This document shows positions 37,324 through 61,638 of a stretch of DNA of 64,000 bases, one piece after another; positions within the stretch are counted from its first letter, which is position 1, and each line of letters starts with the position of its first letter. The notes under the pieces are model-generated. The model did not search any database. It was not told the origin of the DNA and worked only from the letters and a program-made list of their open reading frames with translations. The DNA is from an uncultured Bacteroidales bacterium (GTDB taxonomy: Bacteria; Bacteroidota; Bacteroidia; Bacteroidales; UBA932). Location of the stretch: contig ONII01000009.1 of the NCBI GenBank assembly GCA_900317845.1, positions 51,285 through 115,284 of the forward strand, written 5' to 3'. The position numbers were made by a program, and so were the translations under genes.

Positions 37324-37331
37324 TACCTTTG
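37324..37331 (+). promoter_or_regulatory. -7 box of the SRP RNA
   Basis: TACCTTTG ends 5 bp before the RNA's first stem. Confidence 0.65.
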
Positions 37332-37336
37332 TGCCC

Positions 37337-37433
37337 GGGAAAGTCTTACACGACCAGCTCCCTCTGAATTCCCCCAGGACAGGAATGTAGCAAGGGTAGG
37401 AGGTTGTAGCGGTGCGATGTAAGGGGCTTTCCC
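37337..37433 (+). ncRNA. ffs: Signal recognition particle RNA, small (4.5S) type
   Basis: About 97 nt. GGGAAAG at the 5' end pairs with CTTTCCC at the 3' end. The apical part contains AGGACAGGAATGTAGCAAGG, the conserved Ffh-binding domain with its GGAA-type tetraloop and asymmetric loop. A run of seven T follows as terminator. Partner of Ffh in co-translational membrane targeting. Confidence 0.9.
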
Positions 37434-37442
37434 TTTTTTTGT

Positions 37443-48674: not shown

Positions 48675-49547
48675 TCATTCCACATAGCCTTCCTGGTCGT
48701 AGCCTTTCTGATGGCGGTGAATGAGCGAAACCAGCGGGAGCAGACGGGCATCGGGGACCTCCATCTTTCCAAAACGCTCAAACTGAGCCTGATAGCGCTC
48801 ACGGCTACCGGAGGCGGATAGGCGCTGCTCGATATCGGCCGGGACAAAGAAGGCTGAGCGGTCGGGGCCCAGATAGCGGTAGAACTCGGTGAGGTAGATG
48901 TTGATGCCCGCCAGGTCGAAGTCCCCGAAGTGCACATAGAAGTTGGGAATCTCCTGCAGCCAGGTGACGAGATCCCGCGACTGGGGATAGCGGGAGACCA
49001 GCAGCAAGGGCGCCACGCCATCTCCGCCAAACTGGTCCTGAATCTGTTCCCAAACCTCCTGTTGCCGCTCCGGGAGGCGGAAGTTCTCCATATTCTCCAC
49101 GCCCACCACAATGGCGTTGGAGGGGATGCGGAAGTTCAGGAAGTCATTGATATAGAGGAAACTGCCGGGGCACGGACACATCAGGATTTTTCGATCCCCC
49201 AGCCGCACGCTCAGCGGGCCGATGACATTCACCGGAAAGCCCGGGCAGGAGCGGACGGCCACGACCTTGGAGTCTCCGAGGAGCTGCACCTGCTGCGCAC
49301 GGGAATCGGCACCGGAGAGAACCGCTGCAGTTTCCTCCAGTTTGTCCGGCTGCAGGCCCTTGCTCCGCAGAAAGACATCAAACGCCGCCCGGGAAACCAC
49401 CTTCAGGGACTTCCGGCTGCCCCTCACAATACTGGAAACGCCCCCTTCCGACAGCATTTCATCGGACCATTCTGCCGGGAACCGACTAAAAGGGAGGGTC
49501 TCGCCTTGCCGCAATGCAGCAAACGCCTGAATCAGAGAAGCTCTCAT
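48675..49547 (-). CDS. jetD: Wadjet subunit JetD (TOPRIM nuclease)
   Basis: 290 residues. The C-terminal DUF2220/TOPRIM-like core has the acidic residues expected for the nuclease: Glu 151 in VVGVENMENF and the DxD pair in HFGDFDLAGINIY (Asp 209, 211). JetD cuts plasmid DNA after the JetABC motor has extruded a loop and met itself on a small circle. The protein is shorter than type I JetD proteins (about 390), so the N-terminal arm (DUF3322) is reduced. It overlaps jetC by 4 bp (ATGA) and is the last gene of the operon. Confidence 0.85.
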   Translation of the reverse strand: MRASLIQAFAALRQGETLPFSRFPAEWSDEMLSEGGVSSIVRGSRKSLKVVSRAAFDVFLRSKGLQPDKLEETAAVLSGADSRAQQVQLLGDSKVVAVRSCPGFPVNVIGPLSVRLGDRKILMCPCPGSFLYINDFLNFRIPSNAIVVGVENMENFRLPERQQEVWEQIQDQFGGDGVAPLLLVSRYPQSRDLVTWLQEIPNFYVHFGDFDLAGINIYLTEFYRYLGPDRSAFFVPADIEQRLSASGSRERYQAQFERFGKMEVPDARLLPLVSLIHRHQKGYDQEGYVE

Positions 49548-52500
49548 TCTGCTGCCGCCTCCTTCCGGCTCAGCAGTGACTGAATTACCGTGCGCGTTCC
49601 GTCCTTGGACAGCAAATAAGTGTGCTTGTAATCGGCCACGTTGTACGGCACGGGCGACCCGTTCACCAGAAAGATGTTGCGCGCGCCGGCGAAATCCAGG
49701 ATGCCGCGGACATTCCGGGGATGCAGCCGGCCAATCTCGTCCATCACGCAGTGGATGCGAAAATCCGAAAAACGCCCGCTCACCCGCTCCTTGAACACAT
49801 TGATGAGCATAATGTTCACCATCGCCTTCACCAGAACGTCCGTGCCGTCGGAGCCCACGGACGATATTTTCTCCACCCAGCCGGTGTCGTTGTCGTTCTC
49901 TGTGATCCGGAACTGGAGCTGGAAGGTGTCGCTGAGGGTGAGCCGGCTGCGCGAAGCATGTTCGCCGCCGGTAAGCAGTTTCATCAGCGACAGCAGATGC
50001 CCCACAGCCGCACTGCGGGACTCGTCCCGGGAAGCCCCGGAGAAGAGGTTCACCTGGTCCAGGTCGTAGCCGTGTTCATCGGCAAATTCCTTGATATGGC
50101 CCAGCAGGGTAACCATTTTATCGGCCGACGGGATGGTGCGAAGCTCAATACTCTTCACCGCGCCGATAAAGTTTTTCTCCTTAAAGTCGTAGTTGATATC
50201 CTTGACGATACCGGCAATCTCGGAGGAATTGCGCGAGACCTCGTCCATCTCGTGGGAGATGCGAAGGAGCAGTTCCGTGTAATGCCCGCTGGTGCGGCTG
50301 CGGAATTCCTCTATTTTGTCACTCTCCATGAATTCCACCAGCGAGGAGGCGAAGGCGCGGTACTCCTCGTCGGAGTGGTTGTCTGTCTTGAAATCGAAGA
50401 TATTCCCCGGGTTAAAGTGGGAAGTAAAGGCGTTAACGCTCTGATAGAAAGCTTGTTCCGTATTCCGTTTTTCGCTCAGGACCCGATGGATGGTATCGAT
50501 GAGCTGCCGGCAGGTTTTGTCCGTCTTCTTCTCCCGTCCCTCCGGGAGAAGAGGAAGGGCGTTACTTTGCTCAAAATTCTCCGCCTCCGAGAGGCCTTCC
50601 CGGAGCTGCTTCACAGCATCCCTCAGTTCCTGAAGGGTTTCCGTGGCGCGGGCAAGGGCATCCTCTTCTTTTCTTCGCTTAAGTTTATAACGCTCTGAGA
50701 GCGAAGTCTTTTTACCCTCCACCTTGGACTTTTCCGAGAGGAAGATTTCCTTCTTGTCCAGGTAGTCCTCCTTGTCTTTCCGGTAATTGAAAAGAATCTC
50801 CTTATTCTGCGCAATCCGTTTCAGCCGCTCCTGCAGGCTATGAATCTCCTTTTCACAGCGTTCCAGTGCCGTGGCATCGGCCCCCTGCCCGGAGAGTTCC
50901 CGGGTCTGCTCCGCGTGCAGTGCTTCCAATTCTGCTGAGAGTTCCTTCTCCCGGGTAGATATCTCTGCCTCCACCCGGGTGAGAGCATCGTCGTGCTGCT
51001 TTTGCAGCGACTTGCGCTTGCGGGCATCGGCCTCCATAAGCTTCTGGACCTCAGCCTCTTTCTCCTTCAGGAGGGCGTTCAGGGCCTCCGCGGCCAGCAC
51101 CTTCTCCGCGGTCAGTGCCTGCAGAGCCTCCTTGCACCTTCCCATCGCATCTTCCCGGGCCTTGCGGGTGTTTTCTTCCAGGAGCGAGAGGCGCTTGCCG
51201 GCATCCTCCAACTTGGCCGGCAGCATAAGGGCGGCCGCCTGCAGGCCGGATAGCTCGTCCCGCAGCGGCTTGATCCGGGCATTGTACTTTTTCCGAAGAA
51301 TAGCAAGTGCAGACTCCTTCCCTGCCAGAAGACCCTCCTGCCGCTCTTTCAGCGCTGAGAGTTCCTTTTCCCGCTGCCCTTTTTCTTTCATCAGCTGCTC
51401 CGGCGTGCGCACACGCATCTTGAGGGAGCTCAGGTCCAGATCCACCCCAAACAGGGAATCCCCCTTCGCCTCCGAGGGGTATAAGTTCTTGGCATAGAGC
51501 ACCGTACGTTCATCGGCTACTTTTCCTATTGTCCCCTCCCAGCCGGGCTTGTGCCGGGAAAGCCACTGGATCAGGGAACCGTCCATGGAGGCTAGGAGCC
51601 CCTCGATTTCCGCAATCTGGGCATCCCGTCCCTTCATCTGCGCCCCCACCTCCGAAAGCTGGTCGTCCCATTCGCGCGCTTCCCGATGCTGCTGGAACTG
51701 CCCTTCCTGCATGAGCTTCTCCACAAGCGCCTCCTGTGTTTTTATCGATGCCTCTAACCTGCCTTTTTCTCCGGCGAGGCGGGACTGCTCATCCCGGGCA
51801 GCCTGAATCTCCTGGGCAAAAGGCGAAAGATGGGCCGCGAGCGCCAGCTGTTTATCCGCTGCTGCCATCCGCTCCTGCAGGTCCGTGAGCAGGCTTTCCT
51901 GCGCCGACACGCGCTCCCGGAAGGCCTCATCCACACCGGAGAGCCCCGCCTGAAGAGCCTCCGAGAGCTTTTGTACCTGCGCATTCAGCGCTGCACCAAT
52001 CTCTACCTTTCGCCCCTCCCGGGCTGCGCGCCAGACGTCAAATCCCAGTTTCAATTCCCGCTCACGGTCCTTGTACTTGGCCGTGATATCGGCATACTCC
52101 CGGGTGAGCCGGTCACGGAGCGCCTGTGCCGATTCCAACGAGGCCTGTAGCGCCGGCTCCTGCCCGTCCTCCTCAATAATCGTCTGGATACCAAGCCCTT
52201 CGTATTTCTTCCGAAGTTTAGGAATCCTGTCCAATTTATCGTTCAGGGCACCCAGTTCCTGCTCCAGGGAAGAGAGTTCATGATTAAACTTATCCTGCAA
52301 ATCGTCCAGCCTGTCCTTACACTTCTGTTGCAGCACCTCCGTCTCTTCTACCTGCCTGTCCAGCAGCGGAATCCGCTCCTGCGCATACCGGCGGGCGTAG
52401 CGGAGCTCCAGTAGGCTGCCCGTAAGTTCATCGTCCAGATACAGGAGCTTCCGGTACAGCTCCACCACCTTCTCCCCCTGGCGACGCACCGTCACCTCCC

Positions 52501-53203
52501 CTTGTTTATTCTTCTGGAACCACTGGGAAATGTCATTATATTCCCGTTCAAAACCCGCAAGCTGGCTGCGAAAATACACCAGGTCGATGCCCGGCTCTTC
52601 GTCTCCGAGGGACCTTATTATAATGTCCTTAATGAAATCGGCATCCACCTTGGCGCCCAGAAACACATTCTGGAGGCTTCGTGGAATGTTCTGATACTTA
52701 GCCGTTTCCATGATGCAGAAGCGGGCAAACTCCTTGCCGGTGGCGCGCTTGTTCCCGTAGATAATGTCCCGGTACTCCTGGTACTCGTCCACAATACGGG
52801 TCATGGGAGCGCCCTCCACGCGGCGGCGAATGACGGAAGAGTCGGCCGTCACCTCCCCGGCCTCGTCAATGAGCCATTCCCGCCGGAACGGTGCCCCGAT
52901 AAAGCGGAAGACGCTATGCGCGTGCGAGCGGGAAACCAGCACCGTAAAGGCGCCGAACTCGCTCTCCACCTCGTAGGCGATGTAGGAATTGGCGCCCGGA
53001 AGATAGAAATCGTCAAACGACTTCTTCTCCCGGCTGATGCCCAGGTGCATCTTGTCCCCCGTATAGAAAAACAGGATGGCACGGAGCACGGTGCTCTTTC
53101 CAACACCCTGCGTACCAATCAGATGCACATTCCCGTCCAGGCGTACCTCCCCGTAACGGATGTTGGCGCTGTTCACAAATACAATTCTACTGAGCTGTCT
53201 CAT
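49544..53203 (-). CDS. jetC: Wadjet subunit JetC (SMC/MukB-like ATPase)
   Basis: 1219 residues. Walker A is GTQGVGKST (30-38) in an N-terminal ABC half-domain; long coiled coils fill about residues 240-930, with a hinge-like break near 560-620. The C-terminal half has a Walker B-like HCVMDEIGRLHPRN and NIFLVNGSPVP. This is the DNA-loop-extruding motor that together with JetA and JetB recognises circular plasmids. Its start overlaps jetB by 17 bp. Nothing in the sequence suggests inactivation. Confidence 0.92.
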   Translation of the reverse strand: MRQLSRIVFVNSANIRYGEVRLDGNVHLIGTQGVGKSTVLRAILFFYTGDKMHLGISREKKSFDDFYLPGANSYIAYEVESEFGAFTVLVSRSHAHSVFRFIGAPFRREWLIDEAGEVTADSSVIRRRVEGAPMTRIVDEYQEYRDIIYGNKRATGKEFARFCIMETAKYQNIPRSLQNVFLGAKVDADFIKDIIIRSLGDEEPGIDLVYFRSQLAGFEREYNDISQWFQKNKQGEVTVRRQGEKVVELYRKLLYLDDELTGSLLELRYARRYAQERIPLLDRQVEETEVLQQKCKDRLDDLQDKFNHELSSLEQELGALNDKLDRIPKLRKKYEGLGIQTIIEEDGQEPALQASLESAQALRDRLTREYADITAKYKDRERELKLGFDVWRAAREGRKVEIGAALNAQVQKLSEALQAGLSGVDEAFRERVSAQESLLTDLQERMAAADKQLALAAHLSPFAQEIQAARDEQSRLAGEKGRLEASIKTQEALVEKLMQEGQFQQHREAREWDDQLSEVGAQMKGRDAQIAEIEGLLASMDGSLIQWLSRHKPGWEGTIGKVADERTVLYAKNLYPSEAKGDSLFGVDLDLSSLKMRVRTPEQLMKEKGQREKELSALKERQEGLLAGKESALAILRKKYNARIKPLRDELSGLQAAALMLPAKLEDAGKRLSLLEENTRKAREDAMGRCKEALQALTAEKVLAAEALNALLKEKEAEVQKLMEADARKRKSLQKQHDDALTRVEAEISTREKELSAELEALHAEQTRELSGQGADATALERCEKEIHSLQERLKRIAQNKEILFNYRKDKEDYLDKKEIFLSEKSKVEGKKTSLSERYKLKRRKEEDALARATETLQELRDAVKQLREGLSEAENFEQSNALPLLPEGREKKTDKTCRQLIDTIHRVLSEKRNTEQAFYQSVNAFTSHFNPGNIFDFKTDNHSDEEYRAFASSLVEFMESDKIEEFRSRTSGHYTELLLRISHEMDEVSRNSSEIAGIVKDINYDFKEKNFIGAVKSIELRTIPSADKMVTLLGHIKEFADEHGYDLDQVNLFSGASRDESRSAAVGHLLSLMKLLTGGEHASRSRLTLSDTFQLQFRITENDNDTGWVEKISSVGSDGTDVLVKAMVNIMLINVFKERVSGRFSDFRIHCVMDEIGRLHPRNVRGILDFAGARNIFLVNGSPVPYNVADYKHTYLLSKDGTRTVIQSLLSRKEAAAE

Positions 53204-53741
53204 CGGCGGCCTCCTCCTCGCTAATCGTTAACATTTCCACCAGCCCTTCCAGGAAATGGAAGGCCGATGTCACCTTGTACACCTGCTCGAACTCGTTCTC
53301 CAGTTCGATGAACCCCGCTTTTTCCATATCGTCCAGGAGCATCTGGACCGTGTCTTTGGCGCTGTGCTGTCCGGGATAGAGCTTGCGCGCCTTTTCTTTC
53401 AGTTCTACATCGGCCGAAATGGCCTCCGTGATGGCCGATGGCGTAAAGCGCACGCCGGTGGAAAAGCCGCTGTGGAAGGTTTTCACAAAATCCAGGCGGT
53501 CGATCCACACCCCCAGCGCCGTGAGCCGTCGGGTAAGGTCCGTGCGGGACTCCTCGCGGGAGAAATGGAAGTAGCCGTTCCCCTGCTCCAGCACAAAACC
53601 AATGCCTTGATAATATGCCTTATACTCGTCAAAATTCTCCTCTATATAGTCATAGAGGCGGCGGACATCGGCCCGGGTGCTGTCCTGACTGATGAATCCT
53701 CCCCGGGAGAGGAGCTCGAATATTTCTTTGGTCCTGATCAT
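53187..53741 (-). CDS. jetB: Wadjet subunit JetB (MukE-like, DUF4194)
   Basis: 184 residues of paired winged-helix-like domains: TKEIFELLSRGGFISQDSTRADVRRLYDYIEENFDEYKAYYQGIGFVLEQGNGYFHFSREESRTDLTRRL is characteristic of DUF4194. JetB is the MukE-like KITE subunit that binds the JetA kleisin. It starts 3 bp after jetA and overlaps jetC, as in other Wadjet operons. Confidence 0.88.
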   Translation of the reverse strand: MIRTKEIFELLSRGGFISQDSTRADVRRLYDYIEENFDEYKAYYQGIGFVLEQGNGYFHFSREESRTDLTRRLTALGVWIDRLDFVKTFHSGFSTGVRFTPSAITEAISADVELKEKARKLYPGQHSAKDTVQMLLDDMEKAGFIELENEFEQVYKVTSAFHFLEGLVEMLTISEEEAADETAQ

Positions 53742-53744
53742 GGT

Positions 53745-54944
53745 CTAACGCGGATAAATGAGTGGATACAGGAAGCCTTCCGCCTCACGGTACTCCCCGG
53801 TGATGCGGAAATCTTCGTCGAATTCCACCGCCAGGCGGCAGAAAAGGGTGAGGGTGTCTTCCGGAGTCATCGGCTCCGAGAAATGATAGTTGCCGATGAA
53901 GGTCATCAGGTCCTGCGAGCTACCCAGGAAGGCGTTTCTTACCTCAAAGGTGTTCAGGGTGTCCCTGACCACGGCACCCCGGGAAAGTTCCTCCGGGGAG
54001 AGCGGCTCCGGGTCTGTCTTCCGCCGGGCCGTGGGGCTTTTCAGCGCCGTGTGCGCCTCCTTCAGGGCGGCAATGCCATCCGGCGTATTGGTAAGGGCTT
54101 CCAGCGACGGCAGGCAGTTATACCAGGGGCGTTTTTCCAAGAAGGCGGGTCGATGCGTCTGCAGTGCCCAAATCACATCGGTGCTGCTCTCCCACACCAA
54201 CTGGTCCTTAAGGTACTTGATGCGCCGGATTTTCTCAACCAGACGTTGCTCCGCCTCAATCTTGTTCAGGTACACGATAATTTGGCGGTCCAGTTCAAGT
54301 AAACCATGGTAAGCCTCTGTGAGCGAATCCCTTACCATGGAAACTGTTTCCTTCAGATGGGCATCCATAGAAGGGCCGAAAAACACCCGCTGACGCTCGT
54401 CAAAGAGCTTTTCCGCCTCCTTGATCAGGAGGGCGATATCGGCCCGCTTGCGGTCCAGGTTCTCCAGGCGCTTGCGCTTGACGGCATAGTCCCGCTCATT
54501 CTTGTAGGTGCTGTCGATGGCCCGCTTGAGGTCAATGACATTGCGGTGCGTGGAAAGGGCGATGCTCCGGAGGATCCGGAGGATCTCCCCCATATAGCGA
54601 TGCTTCCGCGCGTCCGAACCTACTGTGAGCCACAGTTCGATGTTCTCGTTCAGCGCATCAATATGCTGCTTCACGGAGAGCACGTTGATTTCCTCGTTTA
54701 CCTCCAGTACCTCCTCGAAAAAGCGCAGGTAGGTATCCTCCAGCACCAGCAGACCGTCCGCCTCGCGGATGACCCCGTGATCCAGAAGATAGTCCAGCCG
54801 GCGGCTGTCCTGGGATAGGAAATGCTCCATCGCCTGCTCCGCCCGGAGCGACGGCGCCTTCCTGCTCACGAACAGGAATCTGAGTATGTCTTTTTCCCGG
54901 GAGATGACGCGCAGCAGCGAATCAATGTCACTGAAAGCGTTCAT
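53745..54944 (-). CDS. jetA: Wadjet subunit JetA (MukF-like kleisin)
   Basis: 399 residues, first gene of the operon. An N-terminal winged helix (ILRFLFVSRKAPSLRAEQAMEHFLSQDSRRLDYLLDHGVI), a helical middle with coiled coil (about 100-240), and a C-terminal winged helix that would bind the JetC head. JetA bridges the motor as the kleisin. It is shorter than type I JetA (DUF3375, about 480) and without the clear DUF3375 signature, so the operon may belong to type II or III; I leave the type open. Confidence 0.82.
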   Translation of the reverse strand: MNAFSDIDSLLRVISREKDILRFLFVSRKAPSLRAEQAMEHFLSQDSRRLDYLLDHGVIREADGLLVLEDTYLRFFEEVLEVNEEINVLSVKQHIDALNENIELWLTVGSDARKHRYMGEILRILRSIALSTHRNVIDLKRAIDSTYKNERDYAVKRKRLENLDRKRADIALLIKEAEKLFDERQRVFFGPSMDAHLKETVSMVRDSLTEAYHGLLELDRQIIVYLNKIEAEQRLVEKIRRIKYLKDQLVWESSTDVIWALQTHRPAFLEKRPWYNCLPSLEALTNTPDGIAALKEAHTALKSPTARRKTDPEPLSPEELSRGAVVRDTLNTFEVRNAFLGSSQDLMTFIGNYHFSEPMTPEDTLTLFCRLAVEFDEDFRITGEYREAEGFLYPLIYPR

Positions 54945-55247: not shown

Positions 55248-55300
55248 AAAACTATGCATTATCATAGGCAAAAATAGCGATTATCGTTCAACAATGCAAA

Positions 55301-55393
55301 TCAATCACCATAATACTCGGTTTCCGCCAAATCGTGTTCCAGCAATTCGGGTAACAGACCAATATCATAAATAAACTCTTTGTCGTATGACAT
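55301..55393 (-). CDS. Possible 30-residue ORF
   Basis: Encodes MSYDKEFIYDIGLLPELL plus an acidic tail, reading from ATG 55393 to TGA 55301. It starts 5 bp after the end of the phosphoesterase remnant, and may be the start of a truncated neighbour of that gene. No ribosome binding signal is evident. Low confidence. Confidence 0.25.
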   Translation of the reverse strand: MSYDKEFIYDIGLLPELLEHDLAETEYYGD

Positions 55394-55397
55394 GGGC

Positions 55398-55639
55398 TCA
55401 AACCAAAACTATTCCATCATCATTAAACCTAAACGCACACCGCACGTCCAGGCACATATAGTAATCGCAGATAACAGGTTGGGACATCTGCTGGGTGTAT
55501 ACGCATCCGTGGGAGTAATGCCTTCGTATGTATATGGATCCAAATAGTCTCCCAGGAATAGGATGTGCTCCTTGCCAAGATATTCATTAACTGCTTGACG
55601 CCAAAAAGTACGTCCGTGAACGTCGGGTATAGCTATCAT
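55398..55639 (-). pseudogene. Metallophosphoesterase, internally deleted
   Basis: The N-terminus MIAIPDVHGRTFWRQAV...HILFLGDYLDPY is a calcineurin-type phosphoesterase opening with DxH and GDYxD metal motifs. After about 46 codons the frame loses its family resemblance. A second frame just downstream encodes ICDYYMCLDVRCAFRFNDDG, typical of the C-terminal end of such enzymes, stopping at 55398. The catalytic middle is missing. Decayed by deletion and frameshift. Confidence 0.7.
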
Positions 55640-55674
55640 AGTTACTTAGTATTCATAGCGTATAATATTATTCG

Positions 55675-55747
55675 TGGCCGCGGTGGGATTCGAACCCACG
55701 ATATCGACATTACTAGTGTTGTCCTTTAACCACTAAGGTACGCGGCC
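55675..55747 (-). tRNA. tRNA with anticodon AGT (Thr), atypical
   Basis: 73-nt cloverleaf: acceptor GGCCGCG/CGCGGCC, D-arm CCTT/AAGG with GG in the loop, anticodon stem CAACA/TGTCG (one A-C mismatch), loop CTAGTAA giving AGT, T-arm GTGGG/TTCGAAT/CCCAC, A at 73. A34 threonine tRNAs are very rare in bacteria. CCA not encoded. It lies about 70 bp downstream of a permuted tRNA-like RNA on the same strand. Confidence 0.8.
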
Positions 55748-55792: not shown

Positions 55793-55818
55793 ATAGGATT
55801 CAGAGTATTTCAAGCTGA

Positions 55819-55966
55819 TGCTTTATAGCCCATGATCTACCATTTGATCTAATCCACCGTGTATTAAATTGATTTAGAGGTGGATGCAGGACTTGAACCT
55901 GCAACCTTGGGCTCTCTTGTCGAAACACTTAACCTCTGAAGAGCCTATACTTTAAACCATAAAGCA
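55819..55966 (-). ncRNA. Circularly permuted tRNA-like RNA (bacterial Y RNA / YrlA-like)
   Basis: On the minus strand a 3' tRNA half comes first: GCCCA, variable AGGTT, T-arm GCAGG/TTCAAGT/CCTGC, acceptor ATCCACC. After a 19-base linker comes the 5' half: acceptor GGTGGAT, TA, D-arm GATC/GATC with A14, GG and A21, then anticodon stem TGGGC. Acceptor (7 bp), D (4), T (5) and anticodon (5) stems are all perfect and every spacing is canonical. The open anticodon end continues into a further helix TGCTTTATG/TATAAAGCA with about 45 nt bulged on one side. This is the topology of the tRNA mimic in bacterial Y RNAs. It lies in the 3' region of the 56060-56866 gene. Confidence 0.75.
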
Positions 55967-56059
55967 GATGCTTTGGCACGATGCTGAAGCTGACGCGCAT
56001 CCCACCGGGACGCTAATTAAGCTGACACATAATGCTTATGCTGATCTGCCAATCAGGAA
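55967..56059 (-). other. Structured 3' region between the unknown gene and the tRNA-like RNA
   Basis: On the minus strand there are two GTCAGCTT repeats flanking a stem (GCGTCCC, GGT, GGGATGC) and a CATAA/TTATG hairpin. No reading frame. Probably the 5' part of the same RNA or a leader to it. Confidence 0.45.
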
Positions 56060-56866
56060 TCATTCGTTCCCGTAGAAAATATACTGGAGGAGCTTGTCCG
56101 TGGCAAGATTCGGTTCGATAGTGGGAGTATCATTGACGGTCTTAGTTGCCTCAATTACCGCATTCATCAATTTGCTAATGCGCTCCTGAACCAGTTGTTT
56201 CTGCCTCAACGTCCATTCTCCAGAGAATTTCTGGGACGTATATGATCCTCGTTTTATAGTAGTCTTAACCTCTTTAGTAATAGGCCGATAGCTGGACGGC
56301 AGGTGCTCCTTGTCGATATTGGGGTCCAGCAGAATCTCCGTGTCCGTGATGGTAGTGAAGCTGTCGCCCTCCAGGCGCGGGGTCTCGAAGATATCGGGCC
56401 GACCCTGATAATCCTCGTTCGCGCTGGCCTTCCAGATTTCGGAGTCCGACCGGACCGGGATGTTCGCGACCAGGTTCTTCAGGTTCTCATCGGTCAGGAT
56501 GTTCTTAAGCCGAAGCAGTTCCGTTGCCGACAGGCTGCCCAGGTTGAGCCCGTCCACGACGAACGGCACCCTGGCCGACCCGGCGGCATTCGTCGCCTCA
56601 ATGGCAAACTGATCTTTTAGATAAGGTAGCAAAGCCTTATCCACCAGCCGCTTAATCTCTTCCGACACCGTAGTGGCCACTACCGTGTGGCCCATCTTGG
56701 TAGGGTCCTCCAACTGCCCTTCCGCCGCATGGAAAGTCTTTTTCTCACCCTTGAATGAAGTGGAATTCCGTTTGAAGAACTCCCCCTGCTTGCGCAACGA
56801 TTCCGTATAAACCGCCCGCTCGTGCTCGGCCTTCGCCAGCGTTACGTTCATCTTTTCCTGTGCCAT
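56060..56866 (-). CDS. Unknown protein linked to the tRNA-like RNA
   Basis: 268 residues; I do not recognise the family. No signal peptide or transmembrane segments. The N-terminal third is lysine/glutamate-rich and helical (MAQEKMNVTLAKAEHERAVYTESLRKQ...). The centre is mixed alpha/beta (LPYLKDQFAIEATNAAGSARVPFVVDGLNLGSLSATELLRLKNIL). The C-terminal third has KRGSYTSQKFSGEWTLRQKQLVQERISKLMNAVIEATKTVND. Its promoter is perfect and overlaps a palindromic operator. A tRNA-like RNA and an AGT tRNA follow on the same strand within 400 bp, so RNA binding or tRNA-related function is a fair hypothesis. Confidence 0.6.
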   Translation of the reverse strand: MAQEKMNVTLAKAEHERAVYTESLRKQGEFFKRNSTSFKGEKKTFHAAEGQLEDPTKMGHTVVATTVSEEIKRLVDKALLPYLKDQFAIEATNAAGSARVPFVVDGLNLGSLSATELLRLKNILTDENLKNLVANIPVRSDSEIWKASANEDYQGRPDIFETPRLEGDSFTTITDTEILLDPNIDKEHLPSSYRPITKEVKTTIKRGSYTSQKFSGEWTLRQKQLVQERISKLMNAVIEATKTVNDTPTIEPNLATDKLLQYIFYGNE

Positions 56867-56934
56867 AATATATAATGTTTAGTATCCCCCCAACAAGCGG
56901 AACCCGGTGGGGACATCCCCGGCATTTCCAAGGG

Positions 56935-56991
56935 CAAAGATACGGGCCTATTTCACCCTCTGCAAATCTTTGCAAACCTTGCAAAGATTTG
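56935..56991 (-). promoter_or_regulatory. Promoter with operator palindrome of the unknown gene
   Basis: Minus-strand TTTG (56963-56966), 20-bp spacer, TATCTTTG (56935-56942). The -33 box is one end of a perfect palindrome CAAATCTTTGCAA/TTGCAAAGATTTG (56963-56975 with 56979-56991). A similar palindrome overlaps the -33 box of the 47685 gene. Confidence 0.75.
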
Positions 56992-59965: not shown

Positions 59966-60577
59966 ATGATACACTTTCAAAATAGCCTGTTCCCAGATAA
60001 CAAGGGAACCTTCGACCCCGAAGTTTTTGTAAGAGAACATATTAATGAACATGTCGCTGAGTGGATTACTTCTTCCATTAAATCTGCGTTCTCCAATATG
60101 CTCAACATGTGCGAAATTCAGCCTTTAACGCTCCGTGCCCAATCGGACGTTCTGCACGACGGGGCGTTTGCGCAGATTATGCAAAATGCGTCTTTACTCC
60201 CAGGCGACATAAAACCCATGTTCTACAGTGATATCTCTGGAAACAAAAAACAGTATTTCGAATTCAACGGCTATTTTTATGTGCTTCGAAAATCCGGAGT
60301 TATTTCTAATGGAACCAGGATAGATAAAGCTATTCAAAACCAAGAACTAGATAAGCATGTTATCACCATTGAATATACCATTAGTCCACTACGAGATTCA
60401 ATCAGTTCAATATCTTTTAAATACATCAAAGGAGACGGAACTGAACTCGATTATATTTTGCCGACCAGTTCTTCGGAGATCTCGAGTATTACTCTTCCCG
60501 ATAATAGTAACACGGACAGTTCTACGGAAACATATACTCCTCGATTCAAGAAATCCAATCATAAGAAAGCTTTATAA
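59966..60577 (+). CDS. Hypothetical protein paired with an ImmA/IrrE peptidase
   Basis: 203 residues; family not recognised. No signal or membrane segments. The N-terminal part is helical (FVREHINEHVAEWITSSIKSAFSNMLNMCEIQPLTLRAQSDVLHDG), the middle beta-rich (QYFEFNGYFYVLRKSGV), and the C-terminal 40 residues are Ser/Thr-rich and probably disordered. Its stop overlaps the start of the XRE-ImmA gene by one base, so the two are coupled. By analogy with COG2856 modules it may be the toxin or substrate of the peptidase. Confidence 0.55.
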   Translation: MIHFQNSLFPDNKGTFDPEVFVREHINEHVAEWITSSIKSAFSNMLNMCEIQPLTLRAQSDVLHDGAFAQIMQNASLLPGDIKPMFYSDISGNKKQYFEFNGYFYVLRKSGVISNGTRIDKAIQNQELDKHVITIEYTISPLRDSISSISFKYIKGDGTELDYILPTSSSEISSITLPDNSNTDSSTETYTPRFKKSNHKKAL

Positions 60578-61638
60578 TGGAGTGTTATAATTATGCCCTT
60601 TTAGAGGTAGCAAGACAACTCCGAGGATTCACCCAAGAGCAAGCCGCCAATTTGATTGGCATTTCTCAAGGCAAACTATCCAAAGCAGAAAATCAAATTC
60701 AGCAATTACCAGAAGCTGTTTTTGATAGTATTGCTACGGCTTATGATTTCCCCGTCAGTTTTTTTAAAAGAAGTGATGACCAGTCTGTAGAGGAGCACTT
60801 CTACTTTAGACGCAAGATTACTATTCCGGTTAAAACGATCGAGTCATTCAAGGCACAGATTAGAGTCTTGAAATTAGTTCTTGATGATCTCCTTGAGCCT
60901 ATAGAACTTCCCGAATGTAACCTTCCATCACTATCACCTGATGAGTATTCTGTTAAAGAAATTGCTGCGACGATTCGGAAAAAACTTGGAATAACGAATG
61001 GACCCGTTCCCAATTTAACAGCGACCCTGGAAAAGAATGGCATCTTGGTTTTTAAGTTTGATTTTGGGACCAATAAACTGGACGGATTATCATCCATCAC
61101 AAGTTCCGGTCACAAGATCATTTTCCTCAATAGCCAAATGCCCAATGACCGTAATAGGTTTTCTTTAGCCCATGAGATCGGACATATTGTGATGCACCTT
61201 GGGCAAGGAAGACCTGGCTCTGAAGAACTAGAGCAGCAGGCTGATGAATTTGCGTCTGACTTTCTAATGCCAGAAGATGAAATTGGTTTAATGCTCTATA
61301 ACTTAAACCTATCCACTTTAGCTGAATTGAAGAAGAGATGGAAAGTCTCGATGAGAGCTCTTATTCGTAGGGCTAAAGATTTACACTGCATCTCTGAAAA
61401 CACCTATCGAGCATTTCAAATAACATTCTCAAAAAAAGGATATAATAGAGAAGAGCCCATCCTTTTAGCGGCAGAGACCCCTACGGTTATTCGTGATTCT
61501 CTTATGCTATATAAGCGTGAACTGGGTTATAGCGAAAAAGACCTTATGCGTATTATGCGCATTAATGAAAATGATTATTATAGATGGTTTAGAATCTCAT
61601 CGATCATACCTCTTAATTTCAAACTATCACTCTCATGA
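60577..61638 (+). CDS. XRE-ImmA/IrrE (COG2856) regulator-peptidase
   Basis: 353 residues. Residues about 8-65 are an XRE HTH (LRGFTQEQAANLIGISQGKLSKAENQ). The zinc peptidase domain follows with FSLAHEIGHIVMH (HExxH) and the third ligand region ELEQQADEFASDFLMP. C-terminal about 80 residues are helical with an HTH-like LGYSEKDLMRIMRINENDYYRW. Proteins of this build act as antitoxins or as switches of mobile elements by cleaving a repressor. AT-rich codon use suggests horizontal origin. Confidence 0.82.
   Translation: MECYNYALLEVARQLRGFTQEQAANLIGISQGKLSKAENQIQQLPEAVFDSIATAYDFPVSFFKRSDDQSVEEHFYFRRKITIPVKTIESFKAQIRVLKLVLDDLLEPIELPECNLPSLSPDEYSVKEIAATIRKKLGITNGPVPNLTATLEKNGILVFKFDFGTNKLDGLSSITSSGHKIIFLNSQMPNDRNRFSLAHEIGHIVMHLGQGRPGSEELEQQADEFASDFLMPEDEIGLMLYNLNLSTLAELKKRWKVSMRALIRRAKDLHCISENTYRAFQITFSKKGYNREEPILLAAETPTVIRDSLMLYKRELGYSEKDLMRIMRINENDYYRWFRISSIIPLNFKLSLS

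What the first reader, a model, noticed from the sequence alone, without database searches (positions are those of the whole stretch)
55819..56866. Circularly permuted tRNA-like RNA behind an unrecognised gene
On the minus strand the 3' half of a tRNA (anticodon 3' strand, 5-nt variable loop, T-arm, acceptor 3' strand) precedes its 5' half (acceptor, TA, D-arm with A14/GG/A21, anticodon 5' strand), joined by a 19-nt linker. All four stems are perfect and all spacings canonical, so chance is implausible. The open anticodon end continues into a further helix (55819-55827 with 55958-55966). Established knowledge: the tRNA-mimic module of bacterial Y RNAs (YrlA, partners of Ro60/Rsr) has this closed-acceptor topology. 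No Ro60 (TROVE) gene is here; the RNA sits in the 3' region of a 268-residue gene of unknown family with a strong promoter and operator. This may be a protein-Y-RNA-like module without Ro60.
Basis: partly seen in the sequence, partly recalled or inferred. Interest (0 to 1): 0.85.

Follow-up and report, generated by a model that had tools for sequence, protein, structure and literature searches.

The report
Phage protein paired with permuted tRNAs
An uncharacterised gene family, widespread in bacterial viruses, is usually followed by an RNA that contains one or two tRNA shapes with their halves in reversed order, which points to an undescribed protein-RNA machine that mimics tRNA.

Summary
The permuted tRNA is real: at 55913-55827 (-) it has intact T, acceptor, D and anticodon stems, with compensatory changes among ten loci. 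It is not isolated. The 268-residue gene belongs to Pfam PF25283 (DUF7873, unknown function). Of 163 DUF7873 loci from viral contigs, 132 have a permuted tRNA-like module within 900 nt downstream, same strand; 0 of 163 have one in the 900 nt upstream or on the reverse strand of either stretch. In a test that ignored acceptor pairing, 64 of 65 cases had 7 of 7 acceptor pairs. Carriers include phages of seven host genera and Streptomyces-type replicons. Three Lak megaphages keep the RNA 160-180 kb from the gene, one with a re-paired acceptor. The RNA also has non-coding-like period-6 tracts and often an encoded N-CCA (96 of 162 modules). TROVE/Ro60 was found in 2 of 29 genomes or records, not in this genome. 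No Rfam threshold is met at the module and no significant PDB fold was found. Function is inferred only.

The parts
56060..56866 (-). DUF7873 (PF25283) protein gene, 268 aa
   Evidence: Pfam E 4.8e-26, 92.4 bits against cut-off 27; AlphaFold2 model mean pLDDT 91.2
56934..56990 (-). upstream region: inverted repeat AAATCTTTGC..GCAAAGATTT and TATCTTTGC, which resembles the Bacteroidetes -7 box
   Evidence: by eye; the promoter consensus is recalled and was not tested; copies of the repeat recur in relatives' loci
56013..56046 (-). hexad tract 1
   Evidence: largely conserved in ten sequences; period-6 signal over these related RNAs z 7.9
55976..55995 (-). hexad tract 2
   Evidence: largely conserved in ten sequences
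55908..55913 (-). permuted module: anticodon-stem 3' strand
55886..55902 (-). permuted module: T-arm
55879..55885 (-). permuted module: acceptor 3' strand
   Evidence: 7 of 7 pairs, compensatory changes in relatives
55859..55878 (-). linker joining the acceptor strands (20 nt)
55852..55858 (-). permuted module: acceptor 5' strand
55834..55849 (-). permuted module: D-arm
55827..55832 (-). permuted module: anticodon-stem 5' strand
55796..55824 (-). hexad tract 3 (AAAGCATCAGCTTGAAATACTCTGAATCC); a similar stretch in Lak-C1
55674..55747 (-). ordinary-order tRNA-like domain (called tRNA-Thr(agt)) at the 3' end of the conserved block
   Evidence: ARAGORN, Rfam tRNA 65 bits; called anticodon differs between relatives; DNA similarity ends at about its 3' end

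Best explanation
DUF7873 and the RNA that usually follows its gene form one ribonucleoprotein. The RNA carries one or two circularly permuted tRNA-like domains that hang from their anticodon stems, joined by strands with a six-nucleotide repeat. Usually it would be made as the 3' part of the DUF7873 transcript and trimmed by tRNA-processing enzymes; in Lak phages it is encoded far away and must act in trans. Copies of DUF7873 would bind the repeats, perhaps one per hexad, so that the tRNA mimics are displayed. In phages the RNP most likely engages a tRNA-directed host factor (an anticodon nuclease, another tRNA-binding defence or a tRNA-processing protein) as decoy or adaptor, and the Bacteroidales copy is a horizontally acquired cassette related to that of Lak phages. 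Shown here: the gene-RNA association, the tRNA-like fold by covariation, the period-6 tracts, the encoded CCA. Inferred: binding, stoichiometry, processing, decoy function, direction of transfer.
For: Module within 900 nt downstream in 132 of 163 loci, 0 of 163 upstream, 0 of 163 on either reverse strand; 148 of 163 against 4 of 163 upstream at a relaxed cut-off; 0 of 800 dinucleotide shuffles at the strict cut-off, 18 of 800 at the relaxed one. Blind test over 148 loci: acceptor 7 of 7 in 64 of 65 cases, 0.97% expected with partners from other loci, 59 distinct acceptor strands among 64. T, acceptor and D helices 99.5% paired and 15 of 16 pairs with double changes over 35 modules, which the scanner had picked partly for pairing. 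Protein and RNA in the same 3 of 121 genus genomes. No other gene recurs widely: largest cluster of neighbouring ORFs 11 of 163 loci. Period-6 self-match 30.2% against 26.2% shuffled, z 17, period 3 not raised; period 6 above the mean of periods 4, 5, 7, 8 in 119 of 135 loci. N-CCA in 96 of 162 modules. In three of three complete Lak genomes tested the RNA is kept at a distance from the gene, 82% identical between Lak-B5 and Lak-C1, with other but fully paired acceptor and T stems in Lak-B5. Lak DUF7873 is 46-48% identical to the window's; order of tract, module, tract, hairpin and tRNA is shared by eye.
Against: No binding, expression or phenotype data. No significant fold match says that DUF7873 binds RNA. 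Gene and RNA are unlinked in the three Lak genomes (about 160, 171 and 180 kb apart), and in L041 the RNA is on the opposite strand. 15 of 163 loci show no module downstream even at the relaxed cut-off, 3 of them with under 130 nt of DNA. ARAGORN finds a tRNA in the stretch held in only 85 of 163 loci, so a link to tRNA arrays is not universal. Upstream 170-nt stretches also show raised period 6 (0.297), but together with 3, 9 and 12, as coding DNA would. The hexad consensus comes from tracts picked for period 6.
Confidence: 0.6

Rival explanations
1. It is a bacterial Y RNA (YrlA family) that has changed partner: the tRNA-like domain is closed at the acceptor and serves to tether or gate a ring protein or nuclease as Y RNA does with Rsr and PNPase.
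For: Same topology; YrlA is the best Rfam match on the permuted module: 30.4 bits, E 1.6e-4 in 701 nt; also listed for 1 of 4 loci (Klebsiella phage, 37.6 bits) and 3 of 7 (37.1, 32.9 and 28.1 bits).
Against: All are far below the gathering score of 69. TROVE in 2 of 29 genomes or records. Two modules, hexad tracts and encoded CCA are not known to me in YrlA (recalled).
Confidence: 0.2
2. The acceptor is not closed in the cell: RNase P and 3' processing cut out the linker, leaving a two-piece RNA with a mature CCA end, as in permuted tmRNA, perhaps even aminoacylated. This can hold together with the best explanation.
For: N-CCA right after the acceptor strand in 56 of 68 and 40 of 94 modules (1.1 and 2.4 expected from linker composition), U at -1 in 42 of 68 and 53 of 94, G at +1 in 47 of 68 and 78 of 94; weak matches to the permuted beta_tmRNA model in L016 and L022, 24.8 and 25.3 bits against a threshold of 84.
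Against: Many linkers are only 6-10 nt, perhaps too tight for RNase P; CCA is missing in 54 of 94 A2-type modules and in 9 of 10 Bacteroidales modules and in the Lak modules; it could be inherited from an ancestral tRNA gene.
Confidence: 0.35
3. A cis-acting 3' element that controls stability or translation of the DUF7873 messenger.
For: Position directly behind the gene in most loci.
Against: Kept, with compensatory changes, 160-180 kb away in Lak phages and on the other strand in L041.
Confidence: 0.07
4. Permuted tRNA genes: the RNA is spliced or circularised at the anticodon side and yields working tRNAs, as in red algae and some archaea.
For: Topology and processing signals resemble permuted tRNA genes (passages of PMC3978253).
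Against: The anticodon-side ends lead into conserved tracts, and there is a linked protein. Bacteria are not known to have the splicing endonuclease used there (recalled).
Confidence: 0.05
5. DUF7873 is a distant Cas7-like backbone protein that coats the RNA at six nucleotides per subunit.
Against: Those matches have E about 0.03, TM-score 0.11-0.12 and rmsd about 30 angstrom; the second model does not reproduce them (one Cascade chain at rank 40 of the 50 shown, E 2.6).
Confidence: 0.07
6. tRNA debris or an assembly artefact without function.
For: Phage tRNA arrays can contain fragments (recalled).
Against: 132 of 163 against 0 in the controls, blind acceptor test, covariation.
Confidence: 0.01

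Closest known systems
YrlA, bacterial Y RNA-like RNA (Rfam RF02553) with Rsr/Ro60
   Same: tRNA-like domain with T-arm and acceptor before D-arm, anticodon stem open towards the rest of the RNA; encoded next to a protein gene
   Different: No TROVE in 27 of 29 genomes or records; DUF7873 instead; often two modules; period-6 tracts; often encoded CCA; below the Rfam threshold
Permuted two-piece tmRNA
   Same: Permuted order, 3' strand before 5' strand with a removable linker
   Different: Here a full D-arm and an anticodon stem; no tag frame was recognised (ARAGORN calls no tmRNA in the window); DUF7873, whereas tmRNA works with SmpB (recalled)
GOLLD and ROOL RNAs (passages of PMC12286853)
   Same: Large phage and prophage RNAs of unknown function, often near tRNA islands; [quoted passage not shown]
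   Different: Those form RNA-only cages, and no protein partner of ROOL has been identified; their Rfam models are not listed here
Permuted tRNA genes of red algae and archaea (passages of PMC3978253)
   Same: Gene order and an acceptor loop closed by an intervening sequence in the precursor
   Different: Anticodon ends lead into conserved tracts with no splice site that I recognised; linked to a protein gene

Membership tests
DUF7873 (PF25283) | Match over Pfam's curated cut-off | tested here: met
   92.4 bits against 27, residues 4-264
YrlA / Y RNA (RF02553) | Score over Rfam gathering threshold | tested here: not met
   30.4 bits against 69; not listed at the gathering threshold
YrlA / Y RNA (RF02553) | tRNA-like domain in permuted order | tested here: met
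YrlA / Y RNA (RF02553) | Encoded with or bound by Ro60/Rsr (TROVE) | tested here: not met
   No TROVE match in G000; 2 of 29 genomes or records have one; L024 was too large and was not searched. Binding not testable
YrlA / Y RNA (RF02553) | Acceptor loop closed in the mature RNA | not testable with these tools
   Encoded N-CCA in 96 of 162 modules of viral loci makes it doubtful for those
tmRNA | Rfam match over threshold, or a tmRNA call with a tag | tested here: not met
   No tmRNA at the module at the gathering threshold and none called by ARAGORN in the window. In one search two lower-scoring overlapping matches of the same clan were left out of the list and may include a weak one
GOLLD / ROOL | Rfam match | tested here: not met
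   Not listed at E up to 1 in 701 nt of the window, up to 0.5 in four loci, up to 0.05 in seven loci
ordinary tRNA (the 55674-55747 element) | Cloverleaf and a consistent anticodon | tested here: inconclusive
   65 bits to RF00005, but called agt, gca, tgt, aat or undefined in ten relatives
Cas7-like proteins | Significant fold match | tested here: inconclusive
   No PDB match at E of 0.001 or less for either model; Csm3 chains first for one model only

The most novel reading that the evidence does not exclude
A new class of phage ribonucleoprotein: DUF7873 polymerises on a hexad-repeat RNA at one subunit per six nucleotides and holds out one or two permuted tRNA mimics, possibly cut open to bear real CCA ends, to capture or redirect tRNA-directed host machinery such as anticodon nucleases.
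Probability: 0.3. Interest if true: 0.95.

Novelty: categorically new. Interest (0 to 1): 0.86.

Why it matters
A protein family of unknown function gains a specific RNA partner across phages of Gram-negative, Gram-positive and cyanobacterial hosts. It would be a second, Ro60-independent lineage of tRNA-mimicking RNPs and gives a concrete, testable handle on how phages manage or defend tRNA. The strict geometry makes it easy to find and to test by mutation.

Tried and rejected
Cas7 homology: followed because the six-nucleotide period and the first Foldseek list pointed there; left as unproven after the second model. A coding explanation of the six-nucleotide period: rejected, since period 3 is not raised. 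RNAalifold on the parts between the modules returned an empty structure for all three parts, which may be a fault of that call. Conserved neighbour genes: none beyond 11 of 163 loci. A DNA pattern from tract 3 over viral contigs gave 43 loci, none with a permuted module within 200 nt before it, so the pattern was not specific. Profile comparison with PDB sequences gave 3 matches, best E 0.078. A 3'-end tRNA used for decoding was set aside because the called anticodon varies.

Literature, all ten searches: 'DUF7873' (0 papers), YrlA terms (5 listed, 6 of 26 listed), 'permuted tRNA' and 'phage' (5 of 6 listed), Y RNA with bacteriophage terms (15 of 17 listed), GOLLD/ROOL, 'circularly permuted' with jumbo phage terms (12 of 69 listed), two-piece tmRNA (8 of 10 listed), 'Lak phage' terms (8 of 14,447 listed, none of them with 'Lak phage', so uninformative), decoy terms (8 of 9 listed). 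No title or abstract start listed describes this system. Only open-licence PMC papers are held. I saw passages of PMC7824862, PMC7790460, PMC12286853 and PMC3978253; of the others only listings.

Full report
What is in the window. On the minus strand a 268-residue gene (56866-56060) is followed by about 390 nt of conserved DNA that ends with a tRNA-like element at 55747-55674. The gene is a DUF7873 member (PF25283, E 4.8e-26); PHROGs gives one match at E 0.35, NCBIfam and PADLOC none for it. Its stems are intact: acceptor 55885-55879/55858-55852, T-arm 55902-55886, D-arm 55849-55834, anticodon stem 55913-55908/55832-55827, linker 20 nt. At Rfam's gathering thresholds only tRNA, on 55747-55675, is found there; YrlA matches the module at 30.4 bits, threshold 69.

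Close relatives. A genome scan gave ten loci from ruminant Bacteroidales assemblies, 88-96% identical in protein, one of them (L011) matched only over residues 174-268. DNA similarity runs through gene and RNA and stops at about the 3' end of the tRNA-like element, and the ORFs around differ between loci by eye, so it behaves as a cassette. Nine of the ten keep the module; L011 lacks it. In ten sequences (window plus L002-L010) 98.6% of cells in the module pair and 6 of 21 pairs changed on both sides. In 121 genomes of the genus, 3 have the protein and the same 3 have an RNA match at E of 1e-12 or less (with filters that lose weak matches). In samples of 295 genomes of the order and 395 of the phylum only the own genome has a DUF7873 match.

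The wider family. tblastn finds DUF7873 in 15 Lak megaphage records at 46-48% identity and in 10 records of phages of Klebsiella. From the Klebsiella phage protein, 73 phage records are reached, named after Vibrio, Rhizobium, Gordonia, Klebsiella, Serratia, Arthrobacter, Pseudanabaena, Rhodococcus and Microcoleus, plus four Streptomyces and Nonomuraea replicons. In the annotated regions that I fetched, a stretch with few or no annotated genes usually follows the gene, often ending in a tRNA. A strict scanner finds permuted modules in 28 of 33 loci examined (9 of 10 Bacteroidales relatives; 19 of 23 phage and replicon loci, several closely related to each other); the misses are L011, three Lak loci and Microcoleus L031.

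Numbers and controls. Two alignment-guided scans and one Lak scan of viral contigs gave 163 loci (80 of 304, 80 of 136 and 3 of 3 confirmed places kept); some are near copies of each other. Modules at the strict cut-off lie within 900 nt downstream in 132 of 163, two or more in 38; none in the 900 nt upstream, none on the reverse strand of either stretch. Relaxed: 148 of 163 against 4 of 163 upstream. In 1.65 Mb of the other sequence of the loci there are 7 hits: a module pair on the reverse strand of L041, and five downstream beyond 900 nt, of which L079's is so only because its gene end was misset in that call (corrected). Shuffles: 0 of 800 strict, 18 of 800 relaxed. Because the scanner demands acceptor pairing, I ran a blind test: T-arm and D-arm in permuted order, acceptor not used; 65 cases in 64 of 148 loci; 64 have 7 of 7 acceptor pairs, against 0.97% with partners from other loci; of these 64, 52 have 4 or 5 anticodon pairs, against about 15.5%. 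Twelve of the 15 relaxed misses were searched with the model R1. L121 has a module about 200 nt behind its gene (55.9 bits); L051, L052, L168 and L190 have matches of 48.7-51.3 bits farther off, which are suggestive only, since a place in the own genome with several such matches in a row, probably tandem tRNAs, reaches 49.6 bits.

Lak phages. In Lak-C1 the RNA lies at 175034-175414 of MK250029, about 171 kb from its DUF7873 gene: tract, permuted module, tract, hairpin, ordinary tRNA, by eye the same order as in the window. A search with that RNA finds it in Lak-A2 (99%) and Lak-B5 (82% over 380 of 381 bases), about 180 and 160 kb from the gene on the circular records, and in the Lak relative G697/L203 (70%), where it lies behind the gene; two shorter Lak contigs, G698 and G699, have no match (gene places). 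The scanner confirms the module in all four, and Lak-B5 has another acceptor and T stem, both fully paired. So the RNA is kept under structural constraint where it cannot act in cis.

Anatomy of the RNA. A2-type loci often have two modules about 150 nt apart. The first module starts a median 141 nt after the stop codon (135 loci). Outside the modules the RNA has a period of six nucleotides (30.2% self-match against 26.2%, z 17; raised at 12 and 18, less at 13 and 19, not at 3). In 187 tracts picked for this period, from 113 of 135 loci, the consensus is S-A-R-R-Y-U, with A 80% and U 77% and a weak first position. The signal exceeds neighbouring periods in 119 of 135 loci; stretches upstream of the gene show 3, 6, 9 and 12 together, as coding DNA would. 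The Bacteroidales RNAs show it too (z 7.9, but over ten related sequences). N-CCA follows the acceptor strand in 96 of 162 modules of viral loci, but in 1 of 10 Bacteroidales modules. The 3' tRNA-like element of the Bacteroidales loci keeps its body but changes its called anticodon, so decoding is unlikely to be its purpose.

The protein. Two AlphaFold2 models (window protein, 132-sequence alignment, pLDDT 91.2, pTM 0.79; L043, 96 sequences, pLDDT 95.0, pTM 0.72) agree on long helices and a long beta hairpin. Neither has a PDB match at E of 0.001 or less, and the first, the only one searched there, has none in BFVD. So biochemistry cannot be read from the fold.

Mechanism. Shown: linkage, covarying tRNA shape, period-6 tracts, CCA. 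Inferred: that DUF7873 binds the tracts, that tRNA enzymes process the RNA, that the RNP acts on tRNA-directed host factors. For YrlA, competitive inhibition of an anticodon nuclease has been raised as a possibility (passage of PMC7790460), and jumbo phages carry tRNAs, RNA ligases and sometimes TROVE (passages of PMC7824862). I put the gene-RNA pair at about 0.97, a physical RNP at about 0.8, and the decoy or adaptor role at about 0.3.

Novelty. I found no description in the searches named in Tried and rejected. PF25283 is a family of unknown function, and no Rfam model reached its threshold at the modules in the calls made. Preprints and subscription papers were not searchable.

Noticed in passing
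window 48675-54944 (-): SMC-like cluster: DUF3584 (E 2.4e-67, weak JetC match), MksE (E 7.7e-40), a 399-aa protein without match and a protein with a sub-threshold DUF7281 match; looks like an Mks/Wadjet-type system beside the cassette. L008 has similar ORFs downstream by eye.
   Followed up: partly
window 55300-55640 (-); L002, L003, L004, L007, L010: A broken reading behind the cassette looks by eye like a calcineurin-like phosphoesterase; the five relatives' proteins that I tested, one each from these loci, all match Metallophos.
   Followed up: partly
window 59966-61638 (+): Two adjoining genes, the second an HTH-Peptidase_M78 protein with a strong PADLOC RmrA match (E 1.4e-61).
   Followed up: no
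window 56950-56990 and relatives: TTTGCAAAG-type inverted repeat upstream of the gene recurs at other places in several relatives' loci; may be a shared operator or small repeat.
   Followed up: no
window 37330-37437 (+): Bacteroidales small SRP RNA, 109.6 bits.
   Followed up: no
L041 (reverse strand): Two modules lie on the strand opposite to the DUF7873 gene in this contig, so the RNA can be a separate transcript.
   Followed up: partly
records behind L019 and L101: Rhizobium phage RHph_Y65 and viral record G691 carry both DUF7873 and a TROVE protein.
   Followed up: no
L030 470-998: Gordonia phage Phendrix has a tmRNA match (89 bits) in its tRNA array near the cassette.
   Followed up: no
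L011 5001-5544: Relative with only the C-terminal part of the gene matched and the permuted module missing, while the 3' tract and tRNA-like element remain; may be a decaying copy.
   Followed up: partly
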